64,000 nt of DNA from Solirubrobacteraceae bacterium. Lineage in GTDB: Bacteria > Actinomycetota > Thermoleophilia > Solirubrobacterales > Solirubrobacteraceae. The translations under genes were made by a program, and so were the position numbers. The stretch is from positions 124,001-188,000 of the forward strand of contig JAUJOT010000004.1 of the NCBI GenBank assembly GCA_030447505.1, written 5' to 3'. Of the stretch, positions 4,611-38,321 are shown piece after piece (positions within the stretch are counted from its first letter, which is position 1; each line of letters starts with the position of its first letter). Below the pieces are notes generated by a model. The model was not told the DNA's origin, did not search any database, and was given only the letters and a program-made list of their open reading frames with translations.

Positions 4611-4620
4611 ACCGTAGCAT
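4611..4620. promoter_or_regulatory. Putative bidirectional -10 element, A-N3-TA-N3-T
   Basis: The sequence ACCGTAGCAT contains TAGCAT on the plus strand, ending 9 nt before the GTG at 4629. It also contains TACGGT on the minus strand, ending 11 nt before the ATG at 4600. The two hexamers share the central TA. TANNNT is the core of actinobacterial -10 elements, and this spacing fits leaderless transcripts. No -35 match was found. Confidence 0.45.
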
Positions 4621-4628
4621 CGCCCCCC

Positions 4629-5774
4629 GTGCCGATCCGCCGTGTCGCGCTCAACGCGCTGTTCCTCGACCCGTCGGCGTCGGGTGGCCCGGAGACGTAC
4701 CTGCGCGGGCTCGTGCCGGCGCTTGCGGCGGAGTTCGCGAGCGTGCGATTTACCGTCTTCACGACACGCAGGGGCGCCCGCGCGCTGCGCGCCGACGGCT
4801 GGGACGCGACCGTCGGCGTGCGGTCGCTGCCGTGCGACGAGGGCCAGCGCGGGCGGCGCACCTTCGCCGAGCAGGTGCTGCTGCCGGCCTGCGTGCGGCG
4901 CGAGGACTTCGACGTGCTGCACAGCCTGGCGTCGGTCGCACCGATCCGCGCGCGCCTGCCGGCGGCGATCACGCTGCATGACCTCACCTTCATGCGCATG
5001 AGGACCTTCGGCGCGGTCACGACGTTCGGGATGAGCCAGATCATCACGCGAGCGGCGCGCAACGCCGACGCGATCGTCACCGTCAGCGCCGCCGCGCGCG
5101 ACGAGATCTCGAGCCGGCTCGGGATCGCGGCAGCGGACATCGCCGTCGTTCATCACGGCGCCGGCCGGCCGGCGTCCGTGCAGCCGACCGATCCCGGCGA
5201 GCTGAAGGCGCGCTACGGGCTCGGCGGCGGGCCGCTGGTGCTGTGCGTCGCGAGCAAGCGCCCGCACAAGAATCAGGAGCTGCTCGTGCGTGCGCTGCGC
5301 GAGCCGGCGCTCGAGCGCGACGCGACGCTCGTGCTCGCCGGCCATCCGGAGCCCTACGACGCGCAGCTTCGCGCGCTCGCCGCCGCGCTGGGCGTCGCCG
5401 ACCGCGTGCGCTTCGTCGACTACGTGCCCGACGCAGACCTCGAGGGCCTGTGGCGGATGGCGTCGGTCGCGGCGTTTCCGACGCGTGCCGAGGGGTTCGG
5501 CCTGCCGGTCGTCGAGGCGCTCGCGCGAGGGGTGCCCGTCGCCTGCTCGGACCTTCCCGTCCTGCGCGAGGTCGGCGGCGAGCACGTTCGCGTCTTCGAT
5601 CCCGACGATCCCGCCGGCGCTGCCCGCACGCTCGCGGACGCGCTCGCACAGGCCGGCGATCGCGACGCGGCGCGTGCCTGGGCGTCGCGCTACAGCTGGC
5701 AGCAGGCCGCGCGCGAGACGTTTGCCGCCTACGAGCGAGCGGTGGCGGCGTGGAGCGCCCGGCGCCGCAGCTGA
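4629..5774 (+). CDS. GT4 family glycosyltransferase
   Basis: This 381-residue GT-B enzyme has SASGGPETYLRGLVPAL (acceptor-side glycine loop), AITLHDLTF, VASKRPHKNQ at the donor-domain start and PTRAEGFGLPVVEALARG (donor-binding ExFG..E motif). A GTG start at 4629 is chosen over the in-frame ATG at 4599. That ATG overlaps the start codon of the divergent methyltransferase, whereas TAGCAT ends 9 nt before the GTG. The stop overlaps the next GT4 start by one base (TGATG), so the two are translationally coupled and probably act in sequence on the same glycan. Confidence 0.9.
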   Translation: MPIRRVALNALFLDPSASGGPETYLRGLVPALAAEFASVRFTVFTTRRGARALRADGWDATVGVRSLPCDEGQRGRRTFAEQVLLPACVRREDFDVLHSLASVAPIRARLPAAITLHDLTFMRMRTFGAVTTFGMSQIITRAARNADAIVTVSAAARDEISSRLGIAAADIAVVHHGAGRPASVQPTDPGELKARYGLGGGPLVLCVASKRPHKNQELLVRALREPALERDATLVLAGHPEPYDAQLRALAAALGVADRVRFVDYVPDADLEGLWRMASVAAFPTRAEGFGLPVVEALARGVPVACSDLPVLREVGGEHVRVFDPDDPAGAARTLADALAQAGDRDAARAWASRYSWQQAARETFAAYERAVAAWSARRRS

Positions 5775-6904
5775 TGCACGTCGGGCTGAACCTCGTCTTC
5801 CTCGTGCCCGGCGAGCAGGGCGGCATGGAGGTCTATGCGCGCGAGCTGCTGCACGCGCTCGCGATCGAGCGCCCGGAGCTTCGCCTGACGTCGTTCGTCA
5901 GCCGCGAGGCGCGCGCCGCGGGCGGGCCGTGGGACGACGTCGGCGCCGTCGTCGAGGTTCCGGTGAGCGCGCGCAGCCGCGTTCAGTGGGTGCGCGGCGA
6001 GCAGCAGCTGTTGCCGGGTCTGGCGCACCGCGCGGGCGTGCAGCTCGTGCACAGCCTCGCCAACACGGCGCCCGCGCGCGGGCGCTTCAAGCGCGTCGTG
6101 ACGATCCACGACCTGCACTACCGCGTCATCCCCGAAGCCCACTTCGGCGTGCTCGCGCTCGGCCTGCGCGTGCTCGTCCCGCTCGGCGCGCGCCGCTCGC
6201 ACCGCGTCATCGCGGTGTCGCATGACACGGGCGCCGACGTGCGGCGCCACCTGGGCGTGCGGCGCGACCGCGTCGACGTCGTGCCAAACGGGGTCGGTCT
6301 GACGCCGGCCGCTGCGCCGCAGCCCGAGCAGCTCCTGCGCGAGCGTCACGCGCTCGGCTCGCGCCAGGTCGTCCTCTCGGTCTCCGCCAAGCGCCCGCAC
6401 AAGAACCTCAGGCGCCTGCTCGACGCGCTCGCGGCGATCCCCGCCGAGCGGCGCCCGCTGCTCGTCATCCCCGGCTACCGGACGCCGTACGAGCGCGAGC
6501 TGCGCGAGCACGCCCGCAGCCTCGGCGCGCTCGACGACGTGCGCTTCCTGGACTGGGTCTCGGACGCCGAGCTCGAGGGGCTCTATGCACTCTCGACGCT
6601 GTTCGTCTTCCCGTCGCTGCACGAGGGCTTCGGGCTGCCGGTGCTCGAGGCGATGAACCGCGGCCTGCCGGTCGCGTGCTCCAACGTCTCCTCGCTGCCG
6701 GAGGTCGCGGGCGACGCGGCGCTGCTGTTCGATCCGCGCGACACGAGCGCGATCACGGCCGCGATCGAGCACCTGCTGCACGATCGCGCGCAGGCCGAGC
6801 GCCTGTGCGCGGCGGGCCGCGCGCAGGCGGCGCGCTTCACGTGGGCGGCGACGGCGCGCGCGACGGCCGCAAGCTACGAGCGCGCGCTCGGGCGCCCGTC
6901 ATAG
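5774..6904 (+). CDS. GT4 family glycosyltransferase
   Basis: The protein has 376 residues. GEQGGMEVYARELLHAL forms the acceptor-side loop, VVTIHDLHY follows, and VSAKRPHKNLRRLL opens the donor domain. PSLHEGFGLPVLEAMNRG carries the catalytic ExFG..E motif. Start and stop are fused with the upstream GT4 as TGATG, indicating coupled translation. The 3' end overlaps the convergent GT4 gene by 31 bp. It is the closest relative in this window of the GT4 at 1729-2931. A role in surface glycan assembly is inferred from the neighbours; donor and acceptor are not predictable. Confidence 0.9.
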   Translation: MHVGLNLVFLVPGEQGGMEVYARELLHALAIERPELRLTSFVSREARAAGGPWDDVGAVVEVPVSARSRVQWVRGEQQLLPGLAHRAGVQLVHSLANTAPARGRFKRVVTIHDLHYRVIPEAHFGVLALGLRVLVPLGARRSHRVIAVSHDTGADVRRHLGVRRDRVDVVPNGVGLTPAAAPQPEQLLRERHALGSRQVVLSVSAKRPHKNLRRLLDALAAIPAERRPLLVIPGYRTPYERELREHARSLGALDDVRFLDWVSDAELEGLYALSTLFVFPSLHEGFGLPVLEAMNRGLPVACSNVSSLPEVAGDAALLFDPRDTSAITAAIEHLLHDRAQAERLCAAGRAQAARFTWAATARATAASYERALGRPS

Positions 6905-8034
6905 ACGGCGGCGACGCTGTCCAGGGAGCTCGCCAGCGAGAGCCGCTGCGCGTTTCGCGCAAACCACGCCGCGGTCTGCTCGCGCAGCGCGGGGCCGGCG
7001 GCGCGGACGCGCAGGATCGCGTCGGCAAGGTCCTGCGGGCTGGCCGAGCGCGCGACGTAGCCGTTGCGGCCCTCGTCGACGAGCTCGGTCGCAGCGTTGT
7101 CGCGGTCGGCGACGACGACGCTCGGCACGCCTCGCGCCGCGGCCTCGACGACGACGAGCCCGTAGCCCTCGCGACGCGACGGAAGCACCATGCAGAGCGC
7201 GTGCTCGAGGCCGTCCTCGACCTCCTGGGCGCCGACGAACCCCGGCGCGCGGGCGACCTCGCCCAGCCCGTGCGCCTCGATGCGCGCCAGCACGGCCTCG
7301 CGCTCGGGGCCGTCGCCGTAGATCGTCAGCCGCAGCTCGGGGGCGCGCTCGCGCAGCGCCGCGAACGCGTCGACGAGCGCCGGGATGCGCTTCTCGGCGA
7401 TGTGGCGACCGGCGAAGACGACCTCCGGCCGTGCCGGCCGCGGCGCGGGCGTCTCCAGCGAGCCGGCGTACTCGCCGCAGAGCACCGAGACCTCGCCGCG
7501 CACGCCTTCGGCGCGCAGCCTGCAGGCGGTCAGCTGCGCGAAGCAGAACGCGCGCTGGCGCACGCGCAGGCCGAGGCGCTGCACGCCCCAGCCGATCCGG
7601 CCGCCGACGGGGCCGAGGTACTCGCGCCAGTACTCGCGCGACCACAGCTCGTGCCAGTCGACGACGAGCCGGTACCCCTGCGGCCGGCGCAGCAGCCCGG
7701 CGGCGAGCAGCGAGAAGTACGGAAACGATGCGGTGTGGACGACGTCGTAGCCGCGACCGTGGCGCAGCAGGTGCACGAGCACGCCGGCGCCGAAGACGAG
7801 CGGCGGCGCGATCCTGCGGCGGCCGCCCTCGGAGTAGAGCGCCAGCCGCGGGCCGGCCGTGCGGACGGTCACGCCGGCGACGTCGGGCCGCTCGCCGCGC
7901 GCCCATTGGCGCAGCGTCAGGTAGGTCACGTCGTGATCGTCGGCCGCCAGGCGCTCGGCGAGGTTCCGATACCAGCGCTCGGCGCCGCCGATCGTATGCG
8001 GATACAGGCAGTCGTAGACGATCAGGATCCGCAC
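6874..8034 (-). CDS. GT4 family glycosyltransferase
   Basis: This 386-residue GT-B enzyme starts at a GTG at 8034 with a typical ILIVYDCLYPHTIGGAERWY N-terminus. VVFAGRHIAEKRIPALVDAF opens the donor domain, and PSRREGYGLVVVEAAARG is the donor-binding motif, with Tyr replacing the usual Phe. The reading frame is open upstream into the tyrosinase gene, but that extension is low-complexity antisense and is excluded. The gene lies downstream of the tyrosinase operon on the same strand, separated by a hairpin. It is functionally part of the glycan locus rather than that operon. Confidence 0.88.
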   Translation of the reverse strand: MRILIVYDCLYPHTIGGAERWYRNLAERLAADDHDVTYLTLRQWARGERPDVAGVTVRTAGPRLALYSEGGRRRIAPPLVFGAGVLVHLLRHGRGYDVVHTASFPYFSLLAAGLLRRPQGYRLVVDWHELWSREYWREYLGPVGGRIGWGVQRLGLRVRQRAFCFAQLTACRLRAEGVRGEVSVLCGEYAGSLETPAPRPARPEVVFAGRHIAEKRIPALVDAFAALRERAPELRLTIYGDGPEREAVLARIEAHGLGEVARAPGFVGAQEVEDGLEHALCMVLPSRREGYGLVVVEAAARGVPSVVVADRDNAATELVDEGRNGYVARSASPQDLADAILRVRAAGPALREQTAAWFARNAQRLSLASSLDSVAAVYDGRPSARS

Positions 8035-8049
8035 ACGACCGGAGACTGT

Positions 8050-8066
8050 CAGAGCCGACGGCTCTG
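8050..8066 (-). terminator. Hairpin 3' of the tyrosinase operon
   Basis: CAGAGCC and GGCTCTG form a perfect 7-bp stem around a GAC loop, 4 nt beyond the tyrosinase stop codon. No U-tract follows, as is common in GC-rich actinobacteria. It sits 15 bp before the GTG of the downstream GT4. Confidence 0.5.
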
Positions 8067-8069
8067 CCG

Positions 8070-9487: not shown

Positions 9488-9511
9488 CAGACAGATCTCC
9501 TCGCCGGCGTT

Positions 9512-13349: not shown

Positions 13350-15776
13350 GTGGACCTGCTCGCAGCCTGGCTGCTGTATCCGCTCGCCCTTGCGGGCATC
13401 TGCCTCGGGCTCGCGCTCCTGATCGAGCGGTTGACGGCATGGCGGACGCCCGCGGCGCTGATGCTGCCGGTCGGCTTCGTCGCGCTGCTCGCGCTCGCGC
13501 GGGTCATCACGTCCGACGCGAGCAGCGCGCGCCTGGCGCTGCCGGTGATCGGCGCGCTCGCCCTGCTCGGGCTCGTCCTCGGCCACCCCAGGCTGCGCGC
13601 GCTGCGGCCCGAGCCGTGGCTGCTCGCCGCGTCGGCGGGCGTGTTCGGGCTGCTCGCCGCTCCGGTCGTGCTGTCGGGGTCGCCGTCGTTCGCCGGCTAT
13701 CTGTCGCTGCCCGACACCTCGCACCAGCTGGCGCTGGCGGACCTCTACGCGCAGCGCGGGCCGGACTGGATGGGGCTGCCCGAGAGCGCCAACCATGCGA
13801 CGCTGCGCAAGTACGTCACGACGCTGTATCCCGTCGCCGGCCAGGCGGCGCTGGGCGTGAGCGCTCCGCTCGGGGTCATCGACCTCGCCTGGCTGTACCA
13901 GCCGTTTCTCGCGTTCGCGGTGATCGTCCTCAGCCTCGCGATCTGGTCGCTCAGCGCCCCGCTGCTCGCGCATCGCTGGCAGGCCGCGGTCGTGACGTTC
14001 ACGGCGTCGCAGTCGGCGCTGCTCGTCGGCAACTACCTGACCGGCTCGATCAAGGAGATCACGACGGTCGCGGTCCTCGTGACGCTGATCGCGCTCGTCG
14101 CCGCGGGGATCTCCGACCGCACCCCGGCGCGGTCGCTGCTGCCGGTCGCGCTCGCCGCCGCCGCCGCCCTCGGCGCGCTCGGGCCGGCGGCGCTGCCGTA
14201 TCTCGCGATCCCCGGGCTCGCGGTCGCCGCGGTGTGGGGTCATCGGATCGTGCACGCGCGGCGCTTCGGCGACGTCGCGTGGATCGCGGCGTGGGCGGCG
14301 CTGCTCGCGCTCCTGGCGCTGCCGATCCTGCGCACGCTGCCGACGGCCGTGCAGGTCACGACGACCGTGCTCGTCGATCTCAAGGACGAGCTGGGCCACC
14401 TCGCCGGGCCGCTGGACACGCGCCAGGCGCTGGGCATCTGGCTCTCCGGCGACTTTCGCTATCTGCCCGACGACGCCCTCGACGTCCCGCAGGCGATCCT
14501 GCTGTGGACCGCCGGGATCTCGGCGATCGTCGGCATCGCGTGGGCGATCCGCGGCCGGCGCTCAGGGCCGCTGCTGATGGCGGCGACGTTCGTCCCGGTG
14601 TCGGCGTACCTGCTCGAGCGCGGGACGACGTATGCCGACTCGAAGGTCCTGCTGATCGCCTCGCCCGCCGTGCTGCTGCTCGCCATGCTCGGCGCGGCGA
14701 GCCTGTGGACCGGGCGCTGGCGCGTGCTCAGCGGCGCCCTGACGGTGGCGCTGCTCGGCGGCGTCACGTGGTCCACCGCGCTGGCCTATCACGACGTGTC
14801 GCTGGCGCCGCACGAGCGCTACACGGAGCTGCTCGAGATCAACGAGCGGCTTGCCGGCAAGGGCCCCGCGATCCTCGGCGAATACGACGAGTTCGCGGGC
14901 TACTTCCTGCGCAAGGTCCCGGGCTACAGCTCGCCGGAGTACCCGCACGAGTTCCGCGACGCGCCCTACGACCCCAACGCGCTGCGCGACCCCAAGCGCC
15001 GGCCCAGCGAGAAGACGCCGATCGACATGGACGACCTGACGCTCGGCTATGTCGAGTCCGTGCCGTACATCATCCTGCGACGCGGCCCGCAGACGAGCAG
15101 GCCGCCCGCGAGCTTCCGGCTCGAGAGCCGCGGCACCTACTACGACGTCTGGCGCAGGACAGCCGAGCCGCGCGTGCTCGACCACGTTCCGCTGGGGCCC
15201 GACGTCCTGCACCAGGCGGCGCGCATCAGCGAGCCGGTCGCGCGCAGGCTGGCGCGCCGCGCGCGCAGGCTCGGCGGCCGGATCGCCTTTGCGCCGCGCG
15301 CCCGACCAGTGATCTTTCTCGCGAGTCGCCACCCGCGACCGCTGCGCTGGATCGGCTTCGGCAACTTCCCCGAGACGCTGCTCAGCGACGGGCCGTCCAA
15401 CGTCCGCGCGCCGATCCGCGTGCCGGCCACAGGCCGCTACAAGGTCTGGGTCGAGGGCTCGTTCGCGCGCCGTCTGGTCATCGGACTCGACGGCAAGCCG
15501 CTTCCGCGCACGCCGTCCGGGTTGAACAACCCCGGCGCGTACGCCTCGCTCGGGACCGTCTCGCTGCAGCGCGGCAAGCACCAGATCTCGATCCGCCAGT
15601 TCGGCGGCGACCTGCGGCCCGGCAGCGGCGGCTACCTGTCGAGCCTGCGCCACATGGGTCCGATCTACCTCGATCCGGTGCAGAACGATCGCTACGTCGT
15701 GCGCGAGATCGAACCGCGTCGCTGGCGCGAGCTCGTCGGCGTGCGCGCCGACTGGCTCGAGATCGTCCGCGAGTAG
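13350..15776 (+). CDS. Large multi-pass membrane protein, possible GT-C-like partner of the upstream GT2
   Basis: Of 808 residues, the first ~480 hold about 11-13 hydrophobic helices and the last ~320 form a soluble, probably extracytoplasmic, domain. The helix-rich half has loops with acidic residues and GYLSLPDTSHQ, where GT-C enzymes keep acceptor-site acids. The C-terminal half contains beta-rich stretches (VPATGRYKVWVEGSFAR, SLQRGKHQISIRQFGG). I do not recognise an exact family. A polyprenyl-phosphosugar-dependent transferase is plausible because the GT2 that would charge the carrier precedes it by 14 nt. The GTG at 13350 is the first start after that stop. Confidence 0.75.
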   Translation: MDLLAAWLLYPLALAGICLGLALLIERLTAWRTPAALMLPVGFVALLALARVITSDASSARLALPVIGALALLGLVLGHPRLRALRPEPWLLAASAGVFGLLAAPVVLSGSPSFAGYLSLPDTSHQLALADLYAQRGPDWMGLPESANHATLRKYVTTLYPVAGQAALGVSAPLGVIDLAWLYQPFLAFAVIVLSLAIWSLSAPLLAHRWQAAVVTFTASQSALLVGNYLTGSIKEITTVAVLVTLIALVAAGISDRTPARSLLPVALAAAAALGALGPAALPYLAIPGLAVAAVWGHRIVHARRFGDVAWIAAWAALLALLALPILRTLPTAVQVTTTVLVDLKDELGHLAGPLDTRQALGIWLSGDFRYLPDDALDVPQAILLWTAGISAIVGIAWAIRGRRSGPLLMAATFVPVSAYLLERGTTYADSKVLLIASPAVLLLAMLGAASLWTGRWRVLSGALTVALLGGVTWSTALAYHDVSLAPHERYTELLEINERLAGKGPAILGEYDEFAGYFLRKVPGYSSPEYPHEFRDAPYDPNALRDPKRRPSEKTPIDMDDLTLGYVESVPYIILRRGPQTSRPPASFRLESRGTYYDVWRRTAEPRVLDHVPLGPDVLHQAARISEPVARRLARRARRLGGRIAFAPRARPVIFLASRHPRPLRWIGFGNFPETLLSDGPSNVRAPIRVPATGRYKVWVEGSFARRLVIGLDGKPLPRTPSGLNNPGAYASLGTVSLQRGKHQISIRQFGGDLRPGSGGYLSSLRHMGPIYLDPVQNDRYVVREIEPRRWRELVGVRADWLEIVRE

Positions 15777-17441: not shown

Positions 17442-18701
17442 TCATCCCGCCGCGCCTTCGGGCGCCGGCTCGACGGCCGCGGCCGCGCGGGCGATGGAAT
17501 ACGCGTGCGGGATGTCGACGAGGCCACCTCCCGCACGCGAGCCCGAGACGACGAACGACGTCGCGTGCTCGGCGCGCGCCAGGACCCGTCGGCCCGACCC
17601 GCGCTGCAGCACCTGGCCGGCGAGGCTGTAGCGACCGGGGGCAAGCCAGTTGTCGAAGCTCACGGCGACCGTGATGACCTCGCCCGCTGCGAAATCGCCG
17701 CTCGTCGTCTCGTCCCATTCCGAGCTCGTCGCGAACGTGCGCCGGTGCTGGGCGTCCTCGACCTCGAGTGCGAAGACGGGCTCGCTGAGCGGCCGTAGGA
17801 ACCGCACCCGCATGCACAGCGCGCACGGCGCTCCCTGCTCGACGCTGTCGCACGGGCCGCGCGCGTCCTGAAACCATGCCTCGACGATGTGCACGCCGTC
17901 GTCGCCGTCGCTCGCGGGTAGCTCGCGGCCGGCGGCGACCGGCACGCTGATCCCGAAATTCAGCTCGGTGTAGCGGCGGGCGACGTGCGCGGCGTCGCCG
18001 AGCGTGACGATCCGTCCGCGCTCGAGCAGCATCGCGCTGTCGCAGAAGCGCTGCACCTGGTCCATGTCGTGGGTGACGAGCAGGATCGTCTTGCCCTCGT
18101 CGCGCGACCGGTTGAGCACGTCGTAGCACTTCTGTTGAAAGGCGGCGTCGCCGACGGCGAGGACCTCGTCGATGAGCAGCAGCTCGGCGTCGACGTGGAC
18201 CATGACGCTGAACGCGAGCCGCACCTGCATGCCCGACGAGTAGTTCTTCAGCTTCAGCTCGGCGAACTCGTGCAGCTCGGCGAAGTCGATGATCGAGCCG
18301 TAGCGGGCACGCGCCTCGGCCGGCGTGAGGCCGAGCATGACGCCGTTGATCAGCACGTTGTCGTGCGCCGTGAGGTCGGGGTTGAAGCCGACGCCGAGCT
18401 CGATGAACGGCGCCATCCGGCCGCGCAGCCACATCTCGCCTGCGTCGGCCCGGTAGATCCCCGCGAGGCACTTCATCAGCGTGCTCTTGCCCGAGCCGTT
18501 GCGTCCGACGATCCCGAACACCTGCCCGCTGCGGACCTCGAAGCTCACATCGCTGAGCGCGCGCAGCGTCTCGACGCGTACGCGTCGCGTCGGGTGCAGC
18601 GCGCGCTCCTTGAGCGTGCTGATCTGCTCGGTCGGCAGGCGAAACGTCTTCGAGACGCCGTCGACCTGCACCGCGATCCCGGCTGCGGGCACACCGCTCA
18701 C
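17442..18701 (-). CDS. wzt: Polysaccharide ABC exporter ATPase with C-terminal carbohydrate-binding domain (Wzt-like)
   Basis: A protein of 419 residues. Residues ~10-250 form the ATPase with VGRNGSGKST (Walker A), KNYSSGMQVRLAF (signature), ELLLIDEVLAVGD (Walker B) and LVTHDM (switch His). Residues ~270-410 form a beta-sandwich matching the Wzt C-terminal fold (MRVRFLRPLSEPVFALEVED ... VDIPHAYS). In E. coli O9a this domain recognises the capped end of the glycan before export. A GTG at 18701 is used; an in-frame ATG at 18770 would overlap the divergent gene by 44 bp. TACCCT ends 8 nt upstream. Confidence 0.92.
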   Translation of the reverse strand: MSGVPAAGIAVQVDGVSKTFRLPTEQISTLKERALHPTRRVRVETLRALSDVSFEVRSGQVFGIVGRNGSGKSTLMKCLAGIYRADAGEMWLRGRMAPFIELGVGFNPDLTAHDNVLINGVMLGLTPAEARARYGSIIDFAELHEFAELKLKNYSSGMQVRLAFSVMVHVDAELLLIDEVLAVGDAAFQQKCYDVLNRSRDEGKTILLVTHDMDQVQRFCDSAMLLERGRIVTLGDAAHVARRYTELNFGISVPVAAGRELPASDGDDGVHIVEAWFQDARGPCDSVEQGAPCALCMRVRFLRPLSEPVFALEVEDAQHRRTFATSSEWDETTSGDFAAGEVITVAVSFDNWLAPGRYSLAGQVLQRGSGRRVLARAEHATSFVVSGSRAGGGLVDIPHAYSIARAAAAVEPAPEGAAG

Positions 18702-18708: not shown

Positions 18709-18718
18709 AGGGTAGCCT
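18709..18718. promoter_or_regulatory. Putative bidirectional -10 element, A-N3-TA-N3-T
   Basis: AGGGTAGCCT lies in the 25-bp gap between the wzt GTG (18701) and the GT4 ATG (18727). TAGCCT on the plus strand ends 9 nt before the GT4, and TACCCT on the minus strand ends 8 nt before wzt. The two share the central TA. Confidence 0.5.
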
Positions 18719-18726: not shown

Positions 18727-20139
18727 ATGGCAGAACGCCTGCACGGGCCGCGACTCCCGCTCGGCGTCAATCTCGCGGGGTATCTCGACGCGACCCTCGG
18801 CGTCGGCGAGGCGGCCCGTCACGTTCGCAGCGCGCTCGAGGCGGCCGGGGTCATGGTCGCCCCCCTGCCGCTGACCGCTCGCGACAGCGAGCGACCGCTC
18901 AGCGCGGCCGCCGCCGAGCCGATCCACCCGGTCACGATCGTCTGCGTCAACCCCGACGCGATGACCGGCGCGCGCGACGAGCTCGGCCCGGCGGCATTCG
19001 ACGGCCGCCACGTCGTCGGGATGTGGTGGTGGGAGGTGGCGGCGCTCCCGCCGCGCTGGCTGCGCGCGTTCGACCTCGTCGACGAGGTCTGGGTCGGGTC
19101 TCGCTTCGTCGCCGACGTGCTCGCGGCGCTCGCACCGGTGCCGGTCGTGCACGTGCCGCTGCCCCTGCCCGAGCCGGTCGCGTCGGACGCCGGGCGCGCG
19201 CAGCTCGGGCTGCCCGAGGACCGCTTCCTGTTCGGCTTCGTCTTCGACTACGCGAGCGTCGCCGGGCGCAAGAACCCGCTCGGCTTGATCGACGCGTTCG
19301 GGCGTGCGTTTCCTGCCGGTCGCGGCGGCGAGGCGCCCGCCGCCGGGCTCGTCCTGAAGACGCTCGGGGGGGAACGCCATCCGGACGAGCACGGCGCGGT
19401 GCTCGCAGCGGCGGCTGCGCATCCGCACGTCACCGTGATCGATGCGCACCTTTGCGCCGCCGCCAAGAACGCGCTCATCCGCGCGCTGGACTGCTATGTC
19501 TCGTTGCATCGCTCGGAGGGCTTCGGGCTGACGATCGCGGAGGCGATGCTGCTCGGAACGCCGGTCGTCACGACGGACTACGGGGGTTCGCGCGACCTCG
19601 CGACATCGTTCAACGCGCTGCTCGTCGACGCGACGCCAGTCGCGATCGGCGCCGGCAACGACCCCTACCCGGCGGACGGCGAGTGGGCAGAGCCCGACCT
19701 CGACCACGCCGCAGCGCAGCTGCGCGCCGCGTTCGAGGATCCCGCCGCCGGTCGCGCGCGCGCACGGCGCGCTCGCGCCGACGTCCTCGCACGCCACGCG
19801 CCGTCGATCGCCGGACAGGCGATGGCGCAGCGGCTCGCGCGGGTGCTGCAGCTCCCGCTCGACGGCAGCGGCCGCGGCACGACGCTCGACCTCGGCGGCG
19901 TGCGCGAACGGATGGCGACCGGGCCGAAGGCCGCCCCCGGCGCCGGCCGCGGCGCGCGCGGCGCGATCCGCGCGGCGGCGCTGCGGGCGATGCGCCCGTA
20001 CACGGTTCACCAGCGGCTCGTCGACGAGGAGCTGCTGCGTGCGCTGCAGTCGCTCGACGAGCGCGTCCGCGGGCTCGCGGCGGGACAGCAGGCGCTGGCC
20101 GCGGAGCTCGCCCGCCTGCGCGGCGGGGATGATGATTGA
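18727..20139 (+). CDS. GT4 family glycosyltransferase with C-terminal coiled coil
   Basis: The protein has 470 residues. The GT-B part runs from LGVNLAGYLDATLGVGEAAR through GMWWWEVAALPP and AGRKNPLGLIDAF to DCYVSLHRSEGFGLTIAEAM, the donor-binding motif. After residue ~390 comes a basic linker with AALRAMRPYTVHQRLVDEEL, then a short heptad-like helix ending RLRGGDDD. The linker recurs in the GT4-methyltransferase fusion at 20622-22814, where a methyltransferase follows; here that domain is absent. TAGCCT ends 9 nt before the ATG. It is divergent from the exporter and probably builds the same glycan. Confidence 0.88.
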   Translation: MAERLHGPRLPLGVNLAGYLDATLGVGEAARHVRSALEAAGVMVAPLPLTARDSERPLSAAAAEPIHPVTIVCVNPDAMTGARDELGPAAFDGRHVVGMWWWEVAALPPRWLRAFDLVDEVWVGSRFVADVLAALAPVPVVHVPLPLPEPVASDAGRAQLGLPEDRFLFGFVFDYASVAGRKNPLGLIDAFGRAFPAGRGGEAPAAGLVLKTLGGERHPDEHGAVLAAAAAHPHVTVIDAHLCAAAKNALIRALDCYVSLHRSEGFGLTIAEAMLLGTPVVTTDYGGSRDLATSFNALLVDATPVAIGAGNDPYPADGEWAEPDLDHAAAQLRAAFEDPAAGRARARRARADVLARHAPSIAGQAMAQRLARVLQLPLDGSGRGTTLDLGGVRERMATGPKAAPGAGRGARGAIRAAALRAMRPYTVHQRLVDEELLRALQSLDERVRGLAAGQQALAAELARLRGGDDD

Positions 20140-24332: not shown

Positions 24333-24881
24333 TCAGAACGGCAGCTGCCCGACGATCTCGCGCAGCGCCGGCGCGTCGACGTCGCGCTGCGACACGAGCA
24401 GCTGCATCTCCTGCGGCCATTCGATGCCGACCTCCGGGTCGTCGTAGCGAAAGCCGCGCTCGACCGCGGCGTCGTAGTAGGAGGAGCACTTGTAGGTGAC
24501 GTCGGCGACGTCTGACAGCACGCAGAAGCCGTGCGCGAAGCCGACCGGGATGTAGATCTGGCGCGCGGCGATGTCGTCGAGCTCGACGCTCTCCCACTCG
24601 CCGTACGTCGGCGAGCCGCGCCTCAGGTCGACGACGACGTCGAGGATCGCCCCGCGAGCGCAGCGCACGAGCTTCGCCTGGCCGGCGCCGATCGAGAAGT
24701 GCATCCCGCGCAGCACTCCGCGCCCGGAGCGCGAGTGGTTGTCCTGCACGAAGACGTCGTCGACGCCGTGCTCGGCCCACACGTTCGCGCGGTAGCTCTC
24801 GAGGAAGAACCCGCGCCGGTCGGCGCGGACGAGGGGCTCGAGCAGGATCGGTCCGTCGAGCCGTGTGTCGATCTGCCGCAT
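24333..24881 (-). CDS. rfbC: dTDP-4-dehydrorhamnose 3,5-epimerase
   Basis: This 182-residue cupin has the RmlC landmarks: RGFFLESYRANVWAEHGVDD, FVQDNHSRSGRGVLRGMHF (catalytic His region), VDLRRGSPTYGEWESVEL, IPVGFAHGFCVLSDVADVTY and DPEVGIEWP. It performs the third step of dTDP-L-rhamnose synthesis. No rmlA, rmlB or rmlD lies in the window, so they must be elsewhere. The ATG at 24881 gives the family length; the open frame upstream overlaps the divergent MFS gene. TAGATT ends 9 nt upstream. It indicates that the glycan of this locus contains rhamnose. Confidence 0.93.
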   Translation of the reverse strand: MRQIDTRLDGPILLEPLVRADRRGFFLESYRANVWAEHGVDDVFVQDNHSRSGRGVLRGMHFSIGAGQAKLVRCARGAILDVVVDLRRGSPTYGEWESVELDDIAARQIYIPVGFAHGFCVLSDVADVTYKCSSYYDAAVERGFRYDDPEVGIEWPQEMQLLVSQRDVDAPALREIVGQLPF

Positions 24882-24889: not shown

Positions 24890-24899
24890 AATCTAGTGT
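24890..24899. promoter_or_regulatory. Putative bidirectional -10 element, A-N3-TA-N3-T
   Basis: AATCTAGTGT lies between the rfbC ATG (24881) and the MFS ATG (24907). TAGTGT on the plus strand ends 8 nt before the MFS start. TAGATT on the minus strand ends 9 nt before rfbC. The two hexamers share the TA at 24894-24895. Confidence 0.5.
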
Positions 24900-24906: not shown

Positions 24907-26436
24907 ATGGACGAGGCCCGCGCGAAGCGGCTGACGCTGATCGCCTGCATCCTCGGCTCGGCGATCGTGTTCGTCGACCAGACCGTCGTCAACGTCGCGC
25001 TGCCGGCGCTGCGCGAGGACCTCGGCGGCTCGCTTGCCGACCAGCAGTGGGTCGTCGAGTCCTACCTGCTGCTGCTCGCCGCGCTGATCCTCGTCGGCGG
25101 CGCGCTCGGCGACCTCTACGGGCGCCGGCGGATCTTCGCGGTCGGCGTCGCGGGATTCGGCGGCGCCTCGCTCGCCTGCGCGGCCGCGCCCTCGGTCGAG
25201 ATCCTGATCGCCGCGCGCGCCCTGCAGGGCGCGTTCGGCGCGCTGCTCGTGCCAAGCTCGCTGGCGATCATTACGACGGTCTTCGGCCCGGGCGAGCGGG
25301 CCGCGGCGATCGGCTCGTGGACGGCGGGCACGAGCGCCGCGATCGCGATCGGGCCGCCGCTCGGCGGGCTGCTCGTCGACGCGCTCTCCTGGCGCGCGAT
25401 CTTCGCGATCAACGTGCCGCTGGTCCTCGGCTGCCTGTGGCTCATCGCGCGGGCCGTGCCGGAGTGCCCGGGCGAGCGCGAGCACGCGATCGACATCCCG
25501 GGCGCGGTGCTGGGCGTGCTCGGCCTCGGCGGCCCGACGTACGCGCTGATCCAGCAGCCGCTGCTGGGCTGGTCAGATCCCGCGGTCTGGCTGCCGCTGC
25601 TCGGCGGGATCGGCGCGCTCGGCGCGTTCGTCGCCTACGAGCGCCGCGCGCCCGCCCCGATGCTGCCGCCGTCGATCTTCCGCTCGCGCAACTTCGCCGT
25701 CGGCAACGTCGTGACGCTGACCGCCTACGCCGGGCTCGGCGCCGCGTCGTTCTTCATCGCGATCTTCCTGCAGCAGGTGGCCGGCTACAGCGCGTTCGAG
25801 GCGGGCAGCGCGCTGCTGCCGATCACGCTGCTGCTGATCGCGCTGTCGCGCCGCTTCGGGGCGCTGGCGACGCGCGTCGGGCCGCGCCTGCTGATGACCT
25901 CCGGCCCGGTCGTCGGCGGGATCGGCCTGCTCGCGTTCATCCGCGTCGACGAGCGCGGCGCCTACGTGGCCGACGTGCTGCCCGCGACGCTGCTGTTCGG
26001 CCTCGGCCTCGCGATGACGGTCGCCCCGCTGACCGCGACGGTCCTGCAGTCCGCCGAGCGCCGTCATGCCGGGATCGCCTCGGGCGTCAACAACGCGGTC
26101 GCGCGCGTCGCGGCACTGCTGGCGATCGCCGCGGTCGGCGCCGTCGTGTCGGCGCAGTTCGGTGCGCAGGTCGAGCAGCGGCTCGATCCGCGCGCGGCCG
26201 ATGCGCCGACTCGCGCGTACGTCGAGCAGGCGCGCGAGCGCCCGCTCGCGGTGCCCGAGGGGCAGGCCGATGCGGCCGCGCGCGCGGCCGTGCGCGAGGC
26301 GAACGTCGACGCCTTTCACGCCGGGATGATCGTCGCCGGGCTGCTGATGATCGCCGGCGGGCTGATCGCGCTCGTCGGGATCGAGAACCCACGGCGCACC
26401 GAGCTCGAGGCGCAGGCAGCCGCCGTTGCGTCCTAA
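24907..26436 (+). CDS. MFS transporter, DHA2 (EmrB/QacA-like) family
   Basis: This 509-residue, roughly 14-helix exporter has motif D1 (VFVDQTVVNVALPALREDLG), motif A (GGALGDLYGRRRIFAVG), motif B (ARALQGAFGALLVPSSL) and motif C (WTAGTSAAIAIGPPLGGLLV). These define proton-driven drug or metabolite exporters of the DHA2 group. It is divergent from rfbC and likely transcribed from the shared TA promoter at 24894. ctaA starts 12 nt after its stop but has its own TAAGCT element. The substrate is unknown, and nothing ties it specifically to the glycan. Confidence 0.9.
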   Translation: MDEARAKRLTLIACILGSAIVFVDQTVVNVALPALREDLGGSLADQQWVVESYLLLLAALILVGGALGDLYGRRRIFAVGVAGFGGASLACAAAPSVEILIAARALQGAFGALLVPSSLAIITTVFGPGERAAAIGSWTAGTSAAIAIGPPLGGLLVDALSWRAIFAINVPLVLGCLWLIARAVPECPGEREHAIDIPGAVLGVLGLGGPTYALIQQPLLGWSDPAVWLPLLGGIGALGAFVAYERRAPAPMLPPSIFRSRNFAVGNVVTLTAYAGLGAASFFIAIFLQQVAGYSAFEAGSALLPITLLLIALSRRFGALATRVGPRLLMTSGPVVGGIGLLAFIRVDERGAYVADVLPATLLFGLGLAMTVAPLTATVLQSAERRHAGIASGVNNAVARVAALLAIAAVGAVVSAQFGAQVEQRLDPRAADAPTRAYVEQARERPLAVPEGQADAAARAAVREANVDAFHAGMIVAGLLMIAGGLIALVGIENPRRTELEAQAAAVAS

Positions 26437-32323: not shown

Positions 32324-32328
<5 letters not shown>

Positions 32329-32452: not shown

Positions 32453-33258
32453 ACCTCGTGCGTGAAGGCGACCGTGTGGACGCGGTCCTCGTGGCGGAAC
32501 TGCAGGAAGAGGCGGTACCTGCCGGGAGCGGCGCCCGCGCTGTCGAACGCGAGCGCCTGCGTCGCGAGCGGATGGACGTGCTGGTAGGCGAGGTCGCCCG
32601 CGCGCAGCATGACGAGGTGGCCCTGCGCGCCGAGGTAGGGCTGCAGGTCGCCGACCGGCGTGCCGTCGCGGCTGACCGTGAAGCGCAGCCGGCCGGCATC
32701 CTCGCGCAGCGCCACGTCGTAGCCGTCGGCGGACGCGGTTGTGGCCTGTGCGGGCAGCGCCAGCGGCTCGAAGCGCCCGGCGGCGAAGAGGTCGACGGCG
32801 ACCGTGCGGCGGCTTCCCGCGCTCTGGAAGTCCGCGACGGCCTGGTAGACGCCGGCGTCGGGGAGCGTCACGCGGGCCGACCAGGTGCCGCTCGCGTCCT
32901 GCGTCGGATGCAGGTGCTGGAAGCGGCGCAGGTCTCTGCGCACGACGATGAGGTGCATGCGGCGGCCCTGCTCGATCTCGTAGTCGCGCAGCGGGACGCC
33001 GTGCGCGTCTTCGATCCTGAACGTGAAGCGCTCGGACCTGCCGGCTGTCAGCCTGGTATCGGCGGCGACCACGCGCAGCTCGCCCCCGGCCGCGTCGGCG
33101 GCCGCTGCATGGCCGGACGCCTCGTGGGCACGCGCGCCGTGATCGCGCTCGCCGTCGGTGATCGCGACGGGCCCCGCGGCACGCCCCGCGAGTGCGGCGA
33201 GCGCGAAGATCGCCGCGAGCACAGCGACGAAGCTGGCAACGCGCGCGCTCGCTGTCAT
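32443..33258 (-). CDS. Exported His-rich protein of the copper operon
   Basis: A 271-residue protein. An N-terminal hydrophobic segment (FVAVLAAIFALAALAGRAAG) is a signal or anchor, followed by a His-containing linker (HGARAHEASGHAAAADA). Two similar beta domains follow, each with a strand ending in a His cluster: MHLIVVRRDLRRFQHLHPTQ and GHLVMLRAGDLAYQHVHPLA. The repeated HLxxxxxDLxxxQHxHP pattern is typical of exported proteins found beside copper pumps and could bind copper outside the membrane. Its ATGA overlap with copZ shows coupling. It likely accepts or buffers exported copper; that role is inferred. Confidence 0.82.
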   Translation of the reverse strand: MTASARVASFVAVLAAIFALAALAGRAAGPVAITDGERDHGARAHEASGHAAAADAAGGELRVVAADTRLTAGRSERFTFRIEDAHGVPLRDYEIEQGRRMHLIVVRRDLRRFQHLHPTQDASGTWSARVTLPDAGVYQAVADFQSAGSRRTVAVDLFAAGRFEPLALPAQATTASADGYDVALREDAGRLRFTVSRDGTPVGDLQPYLGAQGHLVMLRAGDLAYQHVHPLATQALAFDSAGAAPGRYRLFLQFRHEDRVHTVAFTHEVSR

Positions 33259-33461
33259 GACACGAGCGTGTACCCCGCCTCGTCCACCGCCGCCTGGATC
33301 GCGCTGTCCTCGAAGGACTCGCCCGCGACCGTCAGCTGCTTGCTGTCGAGGTCGACATCTGCGCCCTTGACGCCTTCTACCTGTAGGACCTGCTCGATGA
33401 CGGACTTCCGGCAGTGCCCGCAGGTCATGCCGTCGACGGTGTAGTTACGCGTTGGAAGCAT
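33255..33461 (-). CDS. copZ: Copper chaperone, HMA domain
   Basis: This 68-residue heavy-metal-associated domain contains YTVDGMTCGHCRKSVIEQVL, with the Cu(I)-binding CxxC, and the expected beta-alpha-beta-beta-alpha-beta layout ending VDEAGYTL. It carries Cu(I) to the CopA metal-binding domain. It is the first gene of the operon, with AGAGAGAG just upstream of its ATG. Two CsoR-type dyads lie 21 and 55 bp before the start. Confidence 0.93.
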   Translation of the reverse strand: MLPTRNYTVDGMTCGHCRKSVIEQVLQVEGVKGADVDLDSKQLTVAGESFEDSAIQAAVDEAGYTLVS

Positions 33462-33481
33462 CGCTCTCTCTGGTCGGTTTC

Positions 33482-33498
33482 ATACGAGGAGGGGGTAT
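33482..33498. promoter_or_regulatory. Putative CsoR operator 1 of the copper operon
   Basis: ATACGAGGAGGGGGTAT has the same ATAC-N9-GTAT plan and G-rich core as the site before csoR at 11651. It ends 21 bp upstream of the copZ start. Confidence 0.65.
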
Positions 33499-33515
33499 CA
33501 GCAACAGAGCCTAAC

Positions 33516-33532
33516 ATACCCCTCGGTGGTAC
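33516..33532. promoter_or_regulatory. Putative CsoR operator 2 of the copper operon
   Basis: ATACCCCTCGGTGGTAC is a second ATAC-N9-GTAC element, centred 34 bp (about three helical turns) from operator 1. Pairing of sites would suit cooperative binding. Confidence 0.5.
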
Positions 33533-33549
33533 TGCTACGCCTGATCTTG

Positions 33550-33630
33550 ACTGGACGAGGCTTCAGACGTCCTCACGCAGATCTCGGCCACCCAGGCCGC
33601 GCTCGACAAGGTATCGAGGGCAGTCATCGG
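33550..33630 (+). pseudogene. Remnant of a second csoR
   Basis: In the frame gac-gtc-ctc from 33565 the DNA encodes DVLTQISATQAALDKV followed by SRAVIG. This is almost identical to DVLTQISAVQAALDKV of the intact CsoR at 11698. The nucleotide match is also close. No start, no N-terminal helix and no Cys-His-Cys set remain: the residue before DV is Ser instead of Cys-Ile. The fragment then runs into the 3' end of the PucR gene. It lies divergent from copZ, the usual place for csoR. Confidence 0.75.
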
Positions 33631-34850: not shown

Positions 34851-34934
34851 CTGTGCACAAACTACAGATTTCACCGGTACGGGCGGCAGAAATCCGACAA
34901 GAAACCGGATAGGTCAGCGCGTAGCCTCAAAGCC

Positions 34935-35843: not shown

Positions 35844-35932
35844 CAGAGGTCCGGCCGGCTCCGCTGGGCGTGCGGTACGAGGGTGATGCCGCGCGTCGTG
35901 CGCGAACTACGCCTCGACAACGCGGACGGTGC

Positions 35933-36028
35933 TAAGGGAAGGCGCTCGATCTCGCACCCGAAGAGCTCCGAGTAGTAGCTCTGGGTCCTCTCGGCGTCCT
36001 TCCCGACGATCTCGAAGTGCACGACGGG
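35933..36028 (-). pseudogene. Fragment of a VOC/glyoxalase-like protein
   Basis: About 32 codons read PVVHFEIVGKDAERTQSYYS then ELFGCEIERLP. This is the first strand and helix of a vicinal-oxygen-chelate domain, with the metal-ligand His at the usual place. The rest of the 120-residue domain is missing on both sides. Confidence 0.65.
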
Positions 36029-36358
36029 CTGTTGGTGTGGCGGTGCAGGTGCCCCTTGTGCACCCGCCGGCGGATCGCCGGGTCGGCGAGCTCGGACGCA
36101 CGAGCTGATCGAACCGGATCCGCGCCTGCTGGCGCTCCGCGAACCTCCGCGACGCGTCGGTCGGGCGGTGTGTCGAATCGTCGTCGCGCGGCGACGGTCA
36201 TTCGTCACACCCTTCGCCCCCGCGATCTACGGCATGCTCGGCCGCGACCGCACGCGCGGTGCAAACGGCGCGCGGCGTCGCCGAGACCGACCCGGCCGCC
36301 ACGATCGGCCGCAGTCGGTATCGGCTGCACCGCCGAGCGGGCGACGCGACCCTATGAG

Positions 36359-36568
36359 ACGCGTGATGCGGATGTCGGGAGGACCCGGAGAGGCGTCGTT
36401 CTCGATCGCGTCGTCGAAGGCCGCCTTTCCGCTGACGCTGAAGAACGGCGGCATCTCCCACCCGACGTCATCTGTCAGACACCCGAGGATCATCTTGTGG
36501 TCGCCTGCCCTGAACCCGTCGATGTACCTCTCGACGACGCGCTTCTTGACGCTGGGCGCTGTAGTCAC
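36359..36568 (-). pseudogene. N-terminal half of a SnoaL-like (NTF2-fold) protein
   Basis: From a GTG at 36568 the frame reads TAPSVKKRVVERYIDGFRAG, LGCLTDDVGWEMP and FSVSGKAAFDDAIEN, ending at ITRLI. These match the first helices and strand of SnoaL-like domains. After residue ~70 homology ends abruptly in Arg-rich sequence, leaving half of the usual ~130 residues. Confidence 0.65.
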
Positions 36569-36802
36569 CGCGTCAACTGCTTCATCACGCGCGTCGCTCT
36601 GCTCTGCCGCCCCCTCGCGGCGGTTCTCGCCGAAAGAGGCGGGCACAGGACAAGCGCATGCAGCCACGATCGTAGGACCGGCGCGCGAGGGCGCGCCGCG
36701 CGAGGTCTCGCAGCGCGATCTCGTCACGCGACCGCGTGAGCGCGAGTCGCGTCGCGCTTGATCGCTCCAACTTCTGATGACCAGCGGAGCTAGCGTTGCG
36801 GG

Positions 36803-37081
36803 ATGGACGTAGGCAGCGCGGACGGCGAGCAGCTCGAGCTCACGCTCGGCCCGCTGTACCTCGTCGTCGTGGACGACCGGGTGAGCGGGCCGCTCAGCGG
36901 ACGTCCCACGCGCTCGTACCGCTCGCCCGCGCAGCCGCTCGACGACGCGCGCTGCCTGGCGGCGCTGCTGCTCGACCGCGGCGGCGAGCTCGAGGGCGAC
37001 GGGCCGTGGCGGCGACCGCTCGCCGGCGGCCAGCGCCACGTCGCGATCGTCCCCGCACCGGCCGGACCGCTGGGCCGCTGA
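36803..37081 (+). CDS. Small hypothetical protein
   Basis: A 92-residue protein with LELTLGPLYLVVVDDRVSG, then RPTRSYRSPAQPLDDARCLA and GGQRHVAIVPAPAGPLGR. No family, signal or membrane span is recognised. TAGCGT ends 7 nt before the ATG, matching the leaderless pattern of other genes here. It is convergent with the cyclopropane synthase gene and ends 6 bp from it. Confidence 0.5.
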   Translation: MDVGSADGEQLELTLGPLYLVVVDDRVSGPLSGRPTRSYRSPAQPLDDARCLAALLLDRGGELEGDGPWRRPLAGGQRHVAIVPAPAGPLGR

Positions 37082-37087
37082 GCTGAC

Positions 37088-38305
37088 TCAGCGGCGCCGG
37101 CAGCGCACCTGGTAGATGGAGCTGAAGCCCGTCTGGAAGCCGCTGCGCGCTGCGCGCAGGTACAGGCGCCAGACGCGCATCCGCTGCGCGCCCGCGAGCC
37201 GCTCCCCCTCGGCGGCGTTCGCGTCGAGCCGCGCCGTCCAGTGGGACAACGTGCGCGCGTAGTGCTCGGCGAAGCCCTCGGCGTGCTCGCAGACGAAGCC
37301 CGCGCGCTCGAGCGCGAGCAGCACCCGCGAGAGGTGCGCAGGGGCCGCGTCGGGGAAGACGTAGCGCTCCGAGAACGCGCCCGCCTCGGGCTCGCCGTGG
37401 CGCAGGCGCGCGATCCCGTGGTTGAGCAGCCGGCCGCCCGGGGCGAGCAGCGCGGCCAGCGTGGCGGCGTAGCGGTCGAGCTGGGCGGAGCCGACGTGCT
37501 CGACCATGCCGATGCTCGCGATCGCGTCGAAGCGCTCGCCGCGCAGGTCGCGGTAGTCCGCGACGCGGATCTCGACGCGATCCGCGACGCCCGCCGCGGC
37601 GGCGCGCTGGCGCGCGAGCGCCGCCTGCTGCTCGGACAGCGTGATGCCCACCACCGAGACGCCGTGCCGGGTCGCGGCGTGGATCGGGAAGCTGCCCCAG
37701 CCGCAGCCGACGTCGAGCACGCGCTCGCCCGCGCGCAGCGCGAGCTTCGTGCAGACGAGCTCGAGCTTGCGCTCCTGCGCGCGCTCGAGCGGCTCGTCGT
37801 CGCGCGAGGGGTCCTCGAAGACCGCGCACGAGTACGTCATCGAGTCATCGAGGAACAGCGCGAAGAAGTCGTTCGAGACGTCGTAGTGGTGGCGCACCGC
37901 GCGCCGGTCGCGCTCGACGCTGTGGCGCCTGCCGGACGGGCGCAGCTCGACCGCGGGCGGCCGCGGCGGGCGCATCACGCCGGTGGCGCGCGCGGCGCCG
38001 AGCAGCAGCCGGCGCTGCGTGGCGCGGTCGATCGGCGGCGGCTTCCAGCCGCGCAGCAGCGCGAGGACCGCGTCGATGTCGTCGACCTCGAGCTCGCCCG
38101 AGACGTAGGCGCGGCTCAGCCCGAGCTGACCCGGCGCGAGCAGCGCGTGCGCGACCGCGCGCGGCGAGCGCACGCTGAAGACGGGCCCGTCGCCCGACGT
38201 CGAGGGCAGCGCGCTGCCGTCCCAGAAGCGCAGCGTGAAGGGCCGCTCGGGCAGCGCCGCGCCCAACTCGGCACGCAGCGGCTCGGTGGTGGACCCCAAC
38301 CCCAT
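37088..38305 (-). CDS. cfa: Cyclopropane-fatty-acyl-phospholipid synthase
   Basis: A protein of 405 residues. The N-terminal ~120 residues form the lipid-binding domain; the rest is the SAM methyltransferase with VRHHYDVSNDFFALFLDDSM, TYSCAVFEDPSRDDEPLERA, VLDVGCGWGSFPIHAA, VVGITLSEQQAALARQR and ASIGMVEHVG. These are the CFA synthase motifs for transferring a methylene from SAM to an acyl double bond. The ATG at 38305 is chosen: TATCGT ends 7 nt upstream and shares its TA with the promoter of the divergent dehydrogenase. It may act on the product of the nearby desaturase. Confidence 0.92.
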   Translation of the reverse strand: MGLGSTTEPLRAELGAALPERPFTLRFWDGSALPSTSGDGPVFSVRSPRAVAHALLAPGQLGLSRAYVSGELEVDDIDAVLALLRGWKPPPIDRATQRRLLLGAARATGVMRPPRPPAVELRPSGRRHSVERDRRAVRHHYDVSNDFFALFLDDSMTYSCAVFEDPSRDDEPLERAQERKLELVCTKLALRAGERVLDVGCGWGSFPIHAATRHGVSVVGITLSEQQAALARQRAAAAGVADRVEIRVADYRDLRGERFDAIASIGMVEHVGSAQLDRYAATLAALLAPGGRLLNHGIARLRHGEPEAGAFSERYVFPDAAPAHLSRVLLALERAGFVCEHAEGFAEHYARTLSHWTARLDANAAEGERLAGAQRMRVWRLYLRAARSGFQTGFSSIYQVRCRRR

Positions 38306-38311
38306 GACCAC

Positions 38312-38321
38312 ACGATAAGTT
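38312..38321. promoter_or_regulatory. Putative bidirectional -10 element, A-N3-TA-N3-T
   Basis: ACGATAAGTT lies between the cfa ATG (38305) and the dehydrogenase ATG (38329). TAAGTT ends 8 nt before the dehydrogenase, and TATCGT on the minus strand ends 7 nt before cfa. The two share the TA at 38316-38317. Confidence 0.5.

What the first reader, a model, noticed from the sequence alone, without database searches (positions are those of the whole stretch)
4611..38321. Four divergent gene pairs share one TA-centred, two-way -10 element (A-N3-TA-N3-T)
Seen directly: ACCGTAGCAT (4611), AGGGTAGCCT (18709), AATCTAGTGT (24890) and ACGATAAGTT (38312) each lie between two divergent start codons 23-28 bp apart. 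In each, the plus-strand TANNNT ends 8-9 nt before one start and the minus-strand TANNNT ends 7-11 nt before the other, with the same TA used by both. A weaker case is ACACTATGGC at 2937 (2931/2950 pair). Bacterial promoters with overlapping opposed -10 elements are known. Their repeated use as the only promoter between leaderless divergent genes looks like a systematic design in this genome.
Basis: partly seen in the sequence, partly recalled or inferred. Interest (0 to 1): 0.7.

Follow-up and report, generated by a model that had tools for sequence, protein, structure and literature searches.

The report
Shared two-way promoters between leaderless genes
In a high-GC actinobacterium, some back-to-back genes seem to share one tiny promoter of four fixed bases that can be read in either direction; this is a compact, partly conserved version of the already known two-way bacterial promoter, used in a few dozen places at most and not throughout the genome.

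Summary
All five quoted 10-mers are present. Four are A-N3-TA-N3-T elements between divergent starts 24-29 bp apart; the fifth (2937) fails. The window lies in a 3.84 Mb draft genome, by its nearest named relatives Solirubrobacteraceae. TANNNT ends 6-11 nt before 177 of 733 non-operon starts in a 1.2 Mb sample, with almost no -35 signal: the known leaderless -10. A-N3-TA-N3-T is thus a two-way promoter with 23-bp start-site spacing, a published class (Warman et al. 2021, known to me through two later papers). Genome-wide, 18 matches (17 elements) have ATG/GTG triplets 6-9 nt away on both sides, 0 at 14-17 nt. Divergent gaps of 20-29 bp are over-represented; 10 of 18 have a central TA (1.45 expected). 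Three pairs outside the window keep the element across the genus. At site 3 the plus-strand T is present in 3 of 3 genomes with the MFS start 26 bp away and absent in 4 of 4 others. Against a 'systematic design': roughly 2-5% of divergent pairs, a local excess in the window, sites 1 and 4 without counterpart in relatives, and no significant two-sided association outside the window (4 of 50, p=0.42). No transcription start was measured.

The parts
4611..4620 (.). A-N3-TA-N3-T element 1 (ACCGTAGCAT): proposed shared -10
   Evidence: no match to the partner methyltransferase at E <= 1e-20 in the other 6 genomes of the genus, so no conservation test
4004..4600 (-). SAM-dependent methyltransferase (Methyltransf_11), start ATG 4600
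4629..5774 (+). glycosyltransferase family 4 (Glycos_transf_1), start GTG 4629 preferred by me over ATG 4599
   Evidence: start ambiguous
18709..18718 (.). element 2 (AGGGTAGCCT)
   Evidence: plus -10 TAGCCT in own and the four relatives that have the gene; the A for the minus side present in own, G003 (where a different, unidentified minus-strand ATG lies there) and G001 (no such start seen), absent in G002 (separate promoters) and G005
17442..18701 (-). Wzt-like ABC transporter ATPase, start GTG 18701
   Evidence: same start in G002 at distance 48
18727..20139 (+). glycosyltransferase (Glyco_trans_1_4), start ATG 18727
24890..24899 (.). element 3 (AATCTAGTGT)
   Evidence: AATCTA in 6 of 7 genus genomes; plus T only where the MFS start is 26 bp away (3 of 3 vs 0 of 4)
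24333..24881 (-). dTDP-4-dehydrorhamnose 3,5-epimerase (rfbC), start ATG 24881
24907..26436 (+). MFS transporter (MFS_1), start ATG 24907
38312..38321 (.). element 4 (ACGATAAGTT)
   Evidence: no such element upstream of the orthologous minus gene in G001, G002 or G006
37088..38305 (-). cyclopropane-fatty-acyl-phospholipid synthase-like (CMAS), start ATG 38305
38329..39437 (+). zinc-dependent alcohol dehydrogenase; N-terminal part (from 38329) and body (38421-39437) in different frames
2937..2946 (.). weak fifth case ACACTATGGC: rejected as a shared element (no plus -7 T, minus spacing only 5 nt)

Best explanation
A-N3-TA-N3-T between two leaderless divergent genes is a minimal bidirectional promoter of the 23-bp start-site class. 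TANNNT read on one strand and TANNNT read on the other share the same TA, so each strand supplies -12T, -11A and -7T for its own direction. Because this lineage uses a bare TANNNT -10 and seems to start many messages at or near the start codon, four fixed bases serve both genes, and the geometry sets the start codons about 23-29 bp apart. Polymerase can engage in only one orientation at a time, so the genes share one entry site, co-regulated or mutually exclusive depending on occupancy. Shown here: geometry, enrichment, conservation, and gain or loss of the -7T with the partner's position. Inferred: two-way transcription, leaderless messages and mutual exclusion.
For: TANNNT 6-11 nt before 177 of 733 non-operon starts, against 0-5 at each other single distance from 0 to 31; nearly no -35 information in 200 such promoters; 18 matches with start triplets 6-9 nt away on both sides vs 0 at 14-17 nt in this genome, 386 vs 70 in 25 family genomes, 151 vs 44 in 16 other genomes of the order; in the 1.2 Mb sample without the window, 3 of 23 divergent pairs with both signals share the same TA while no other offset occurs more than once; the gap class 20-29 bp holds 18 pairs vs 5, 6 and 9 in the classes 10-19, 30-39 and 40-49 (Poisson P 2e-4); central TA in 10 of 18 vs 1.45 +/- 1.14; A, TA and T kept in three pairs, 7 of 7, 7 of 7 and 6 of 6 loci examined, own included; in 5 of 5 relatives both genes of pair L016 begin right beside the element; at site 3 the plus T tracks the partner start (3 of 3 vs 0 of 4, Fisher p=0.029), with at least two changes on the tree; published symmetric -10 class with 10-, 18- and 23-bp spacing (passages).
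Against: No transcription starts were measured. Outside the window, among 50 elements 4 have starts on both sides, 5 plus only and 11 minus only (p=0.42), so many may be one-way promoters with a chance A. TANNNT with that A is not more often followed by a start (0.240 of 100 vs 0.332 of 934). The offset test takes the smallest offset among allowed starts, which favours zero. G014, G024 and G025 samples show no clear gap peak (4, 1 and 1 pairs at 20-29 bp) and 1, 0 and 0 shared pairs. Sites 1 and 4 lack conservation, and L027 is found in one relative only, without the element. In the own genome the minus gene of pair L016 is cut off from the element by extra DNA: the adjacent ATG opens only 33 codons. 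In L049 of G005 the element stays although the plus start is 71 bp from the minus start. The tool's reversed pattern gives 9 in this genome and 308 in all 41, a weaker contrast than the displaced control; in the 16 genomes of other families it gives 160, more than the 151 shared.
Confidence: 0.7

Rival explanations
1. Two independent one-way leaderless promoters happen to overlap because short divergent gaps leave no other room; the sharing carries no function and the window is a chance cluster.
For: The class is rare; 11 of 50 elements outside the window have a start only on the minus and 5 only on the plus side; sites 1 and 4 have no counterpart in relatives; window density is a local outlier.
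Against: Gap class 20-29 bp is itself in excess, central TA 10 of 18 vs 1.45, and A/TA/T are kept in three pairs across the genus.
Confidence: 0.2
2. The symmetric site is a transcription-factor operator, or an operator over a promoter, and symmetry reflects a dimeric regulator.
For: Pair L012 has a GCGCAA-N7-TTGCGC inverted repeat around the element in the own genome; the inner N bases are also conserved in L012 (6 of 6) and L049 (5 of 6).
Against: The inner sequences differ between pairs, and only A, TA and T are common; spacing to start codons matches the general -10 profile.
Confidence: 0.05
3. Only one direction is a true promoter; the other is antisense noise and the second gene is led by a promoter inside its neighbour.
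For: [quoted passage not shown]
Against: Both -7T positions are conserved in L012, L016 and L049; at site 3 the T disappears when the partner lies further away, and in those three genomes the MFS gene has its own TANNNT.
Confidence: 0.1

Closest known systems
Bidirectional promoters with symmetric -10 elements (Warman et al. 2021, Nat Microbiol: not held, not read; known through passages of PMC12825309, and PMC10268837)
   Same: One pseudo-symmetric -10 drives both strands; 23 bp is one of the three common start-site spacings (18 most common, 10 and 23 also common); 24% of those in E. coli lie between divergent genes.
   Different: [quoted passage not shown] Here the 23-bp form gives 18 matches vs 7 for the 18-bp form at the same -10-to-start distance, and both genes appear leaderless, so the promoter fills the whole 22-28 bp gap.
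TANNNT-led leaderless genes of Actinobacteria (PMC3160421, passages) and M. tuberculosis (PMC3898074, passages)
   Same: TANNNT about 10-12 bp before the start codon; no conserved -35 found in M. tuberculosis; more than 20% of genes leaderless in Actinobacteria by the abstract of PMC3160421.
   Different: The passages seen do not describe one element shared by two divergent leaderless genes. PMC3898074 does say that closely juxtaposed divergent promoters are common; its leaderless prpD/Rv1129c pair has start sites 120 bp apart by its Table 2.

Membership tests
Bidirectional (symmetric -10) promoter, 23-bp class | -12T, -11A and -7T present for both strands with a shared TA | tested here: met
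   (four of the five sites; the fifth not met)
Bidirectional (symmetric -10) promoter, 23-bp class | two transcription start sites about 23 bp apart on opposite strands | not testable with these tools
   only start codons 24-29 bp apart (window) are seen
Bidirectional (symmetric -10) promoter, 23-bp class | both directions depend on the same bases | tested here: inconclusive
   comparative only: conservation and co-variation of T with partner position
TANNNT leaderless genes | TANNNT at a fixed short distance before the start codon | tested here: met
TANNNT leaderless genes | no 5' untranslated region on the mRNA | not testable with these tools
   no RNA data

The most novel reading that the evidence does not exclude
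Four bases (A-N3-TA-N3-T) form a complete two-way leaderless promoter that sets the distance between divergent start codons across Solirubrobacteraceae, and gene pairs move in and out of this fused state by gaining or losing the -7T as neighbours are inserted or swapped, so polymerase orientation couples the two genes.
Probability: 0.35. Interest if true: 0.55.

Novelty: new variant of a known kind. Interest (0 to 1): 0.4.

Why it matters
If true, it is the smallest divergent gene architecture of this kind that I know of: one -10 with both start codons at the transcript ends. It would make a clean test of whether polymerase competition couples two genes, because leader, Shine-Dalgarno site and -35 seem not to be in play. 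It also shows promoter fusion and splitting between related species, which can be followed base by base.

Tried and rejected
Rejected: the fifth site (2937), which has no plus -7T and a 5-nt spacing seen for 0 of 733 starts. Rejected as general: the claim that the element is the genome's standard solution. The 18-bp form (TANNNTA) was tested as an alternative: 7 matches in this genome against 2 for its reversed pattern, and 167 in the 25 family genomes against 170, so no clear excess. Replication in three other genomes of the order (400 kb each) was too small to decide. A search for -35 words gave a slight bump only (8 of 200). The repeat finder on L225 gave nothing that I used. Early gene callers had errors: one search missed the methyltransferase at 4004-4600, and one search is invalid through a script bug (fixed); its figures are not used. 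In one search the minus-gene query for pair L016 began upstream of the true protein start, so the distances printed for it are not used; one search replaces them (its printed gap of 8 is one too many; the gap is 7, as). Rows left out: of the 8 matches for the L049 protein the eighth, L224 at 26% identity, was not examined; for rfbC second matches in G004, G005 and G006 (64, 42 and 43% identity) were not examined.
Full report
What was checked. The five quoted 10-mers are all present. Four have the form A-N3-TA-N3-T, and only six such strings occur in the 64 kb window. Each of the four lies between two divergent start codons with 6-10 nt on the minus side and 7-8 nt on the plus side. The fifth does not fit: the plus -7 T is missing and the minus start is 5 nt away.

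Where it is. The window is G000:C11:124001-188000 of a 3.84 Mb, 13-contig genome. The closest named records by the MFS protein are Solirubrobacteraceae metagenome-assembled genomes; the family of the window itself is inferred from that. The genes beside sites 1-3 include glycosyltransferases, a methyltransferase, a Wzt-like ABC ATPase, dTDP-4-dehydrorhamnose 3,5-epimerase and an MFS transporter; site 4 has a CMAS-type cyclopropane synthase and a zinc dehydrogenase.

The promoter type. I wrote a gene caller that uses coding score only, not promoter motifs, and ran it on 60 stretches of 20 kb (1.2 Mb, 31% of the genome), every second stretch of parts of 7 of the 13 contigs, chosen without regard to the element and leaving out the window. 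Among 733 genes with at least 20 nt free upstream, TANNNT ends 6, 7, 8, 9, 10 and 11 nt before the start in 43, 38, 39, 27, 22 and 8 cases (177 in all), against 0-5 at each other distance from 0 to 31. In 200 genes with that signal (operon-like ones included), no position outside TA, T and the start region carries more than 0.11 bit, and -35-like words peak at 8 of 200. This matches the TANNNT leaderless genes described for Actinobacteria (PMC3160421, passages) and M. tuberculosis, where no conserved -35 was found (PMC3898074, passages). Shine-Dalgarno-like words are also common in this genome (147 at 4-11 nt against 35 at 20-27 nt for the 733 genes), so leaderless starts are one of two modes.

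Is the shared geometry more than chance? (a) In 1.264 Mb (sample plus window) there are 58 elements: 18 called in divergent gaps (30.7 kb), 14 in tandem gaps (81.1 kb), 4 in convergent gaps (28.2 kb), 17 in coding sequence (1,115 kb) and 5 at stretch ends. (b) Genome-wide, 18 matches (17 distinct elements) have ATG or GTG triplets 6-9 nt away on both sides, and none has them 14-17 nt away on both sides; I did not check that all are gene starts, and one of them (L016) is not one on its minus side in this genome. Over 41 genomes the figures are 537 and 114; 38 genomes show more shared than displaced, 2 equal, 1 fewer. The tool's reversed pattern gives 9 and 308, a weaker contrast, and in the 16 genomes outside the family 160 against 151. 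(c) In the sample without the window, 23 of 164 divergent pairs have TANNNT on both sides; 3 share the same TA and the other 20 each have a different offset. I took the smallest offset among allowed starts, which favours zero. (d) Gaps of 20-29 bp number 18, against 5, 6 and 9 in the classes 10-19, 30-39 and 40-49 (Poisson P 2e-4). Of these 18, 10 have a central TA where random pieces of longer divergent gaps give 1.45 +/- 1.14 (reported P 0.0000 in 5000 draws). Some of these keep only one complete TANNNT.

What speaks against a genome-wide design. Outside the window, of 50 elements away from stretch ends, 4 have a start on both sides, 5 plus only, 11 minus only and 30 neither; the association is not significant (p=0.42; 8, 6, 11 and 31 with the window, p=0.051). 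TANNNT preceded by the critical A is not more often followed by a start (0.240 of 100 against 0.332 of 934). With 27 matches at the looser 6-12 nt spacing, the window's 4 compare with about 0.4 expected from the rest. Samples of three other genomes of the order (400 kb each) gave 1, 0 and 0 shared pairs among 5, 6 and 3 with both signals, and no clear gap peak.

Comparative evidence. I examined eight pairs in the seven genomes of the genus held (own included): four of the window and four outside. Three outside pairs keep A, TA and T in every locus examined: L012 (a CBS-domain-like gene by my reading, not searched), 7 of 7; L049 (flippase-like, likewise), 7 of 7 loci in 6 genomes, with an eighth, 26%-identical match left out; L016 (metallo-beta-lactamase-fold-like, likewise), 6 of 6. 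For L016, in 5 of 5 relatives the minus-strand protein (126-127 codons) begins at the ATG 7 nt from the element; in the own genome extra DNA follows that ATG, which opens only 33 codons. In L049 of G005 the element remains although the plus start lies 71 bp from the minus start. In L012 of G002 the tblastn match of the minus partner points to a start 80 bp away, although the CAC triplet is in place. At site 3, AATCTA upstream of rfbC is present in 6 of 7 genomes (best rfbC match of each). The MFS start is 26 bp from the rfbC start in own, G002 and G003, and all three have the plus-strand T. In G001, G005 and G006 the distance is 60, 235 and 73 bp, the T is gone, and the MFS gene has its own TANNNT (TAGTCT, TAGGGT, TAGTCT). 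In G004 no MFS partner was found in the locus and the T is absent. That is 3 of 3 against 0 of 4 (Fisher p=0.029). A five-protein tree groups own with G003 and G001 with G002, so the state changed at least twice. At site 2 the plus -10 TAGCCT is present in all five genomes in which the gene was matched. The A for the minus side is present in own, in G003 (next to a different minus-strand ATG, whose gene I did not identify) and in G001 (no such start seen), and absent in G002 and G005. The site 1 methyltransferase has no match in the six relatives. The site 4 element is absent upstream of the orthologous gene in G001, G002 and G006. L027 is found in one relative only, which lacks the element.

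Mechanism. The best reading is a bidirectional promoter of the 23-bp class. Passages of PMC12825309 state that inherent -10 symmetry allows divergent transcription, that 18 bp is the most common distance with 10 and 23 also common, and that opposing polymerases cannot bind at once. Its abstract also reports that basal transcription at the five tested E. coli promoters was too low for competition, while strong activation in one direction can repress the other. Sharing TA at -12/-11 gives start sites 23 bp apart by arithmetic; with leaderless messages the start codons fall at about that distance plus 0-6. Two-way transcription and mutual exclusion here are inferred.

Novelty. The promoter class is known. 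Searches for a description of such a shared -10 between two leaderless divergent genes (listings only, except the passages cited) did not show one, but the founding paper (Nat Microbiol 2021) is not held, and most subscription papers are outside the library. I file it as a variant of the known kind in a leaderless, -35-poor lineage.

Noticed in passing
window 38329-38421: The zinc-dependent alcohol dehydrogenase changes reading frame between its N-terminal part and its body: a pseudogene or a draft-assembly error.
   Followed up: partly
L016 about 15337-15427 (own genome; L225): The minus gene of this conserved pair (glyoxalase-like by eye) has extra DNA with a G/C hairpin between the promoter-proximal ATG and the conserved start of the protein; the ATG opens only 33 codons, while five relatives read straight through. 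It looks like a small insertion with a duplicated start region.
   Followed up: partly
L012 535-556 and orthologues L231-L237: The shared element sits inside an inverted repeat GCGCAA-N7-TTGCGC in the own genome, partly conserved in the genus; a possible operator or paired discriminators.
   Followed up: no
window 33440-33530: Upstream of a small minus-strand gene (33255-33461) lie TACCCCCTC-like boxes on both strands, recalled as resembling copper-regulator (CsoR) operators; one of the six A-N3-TA-N3-T strings of the window falls there.
   Followed up: no
own genome sample, L001-L060 and window: A-N3-TA-N3-T is strongly under-represented (58 vs 316-421 for symmetric spacings 2, 4 and 5), which I put down to codon phase in a genome rich in G/C at third positions.
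   Followed up: partly
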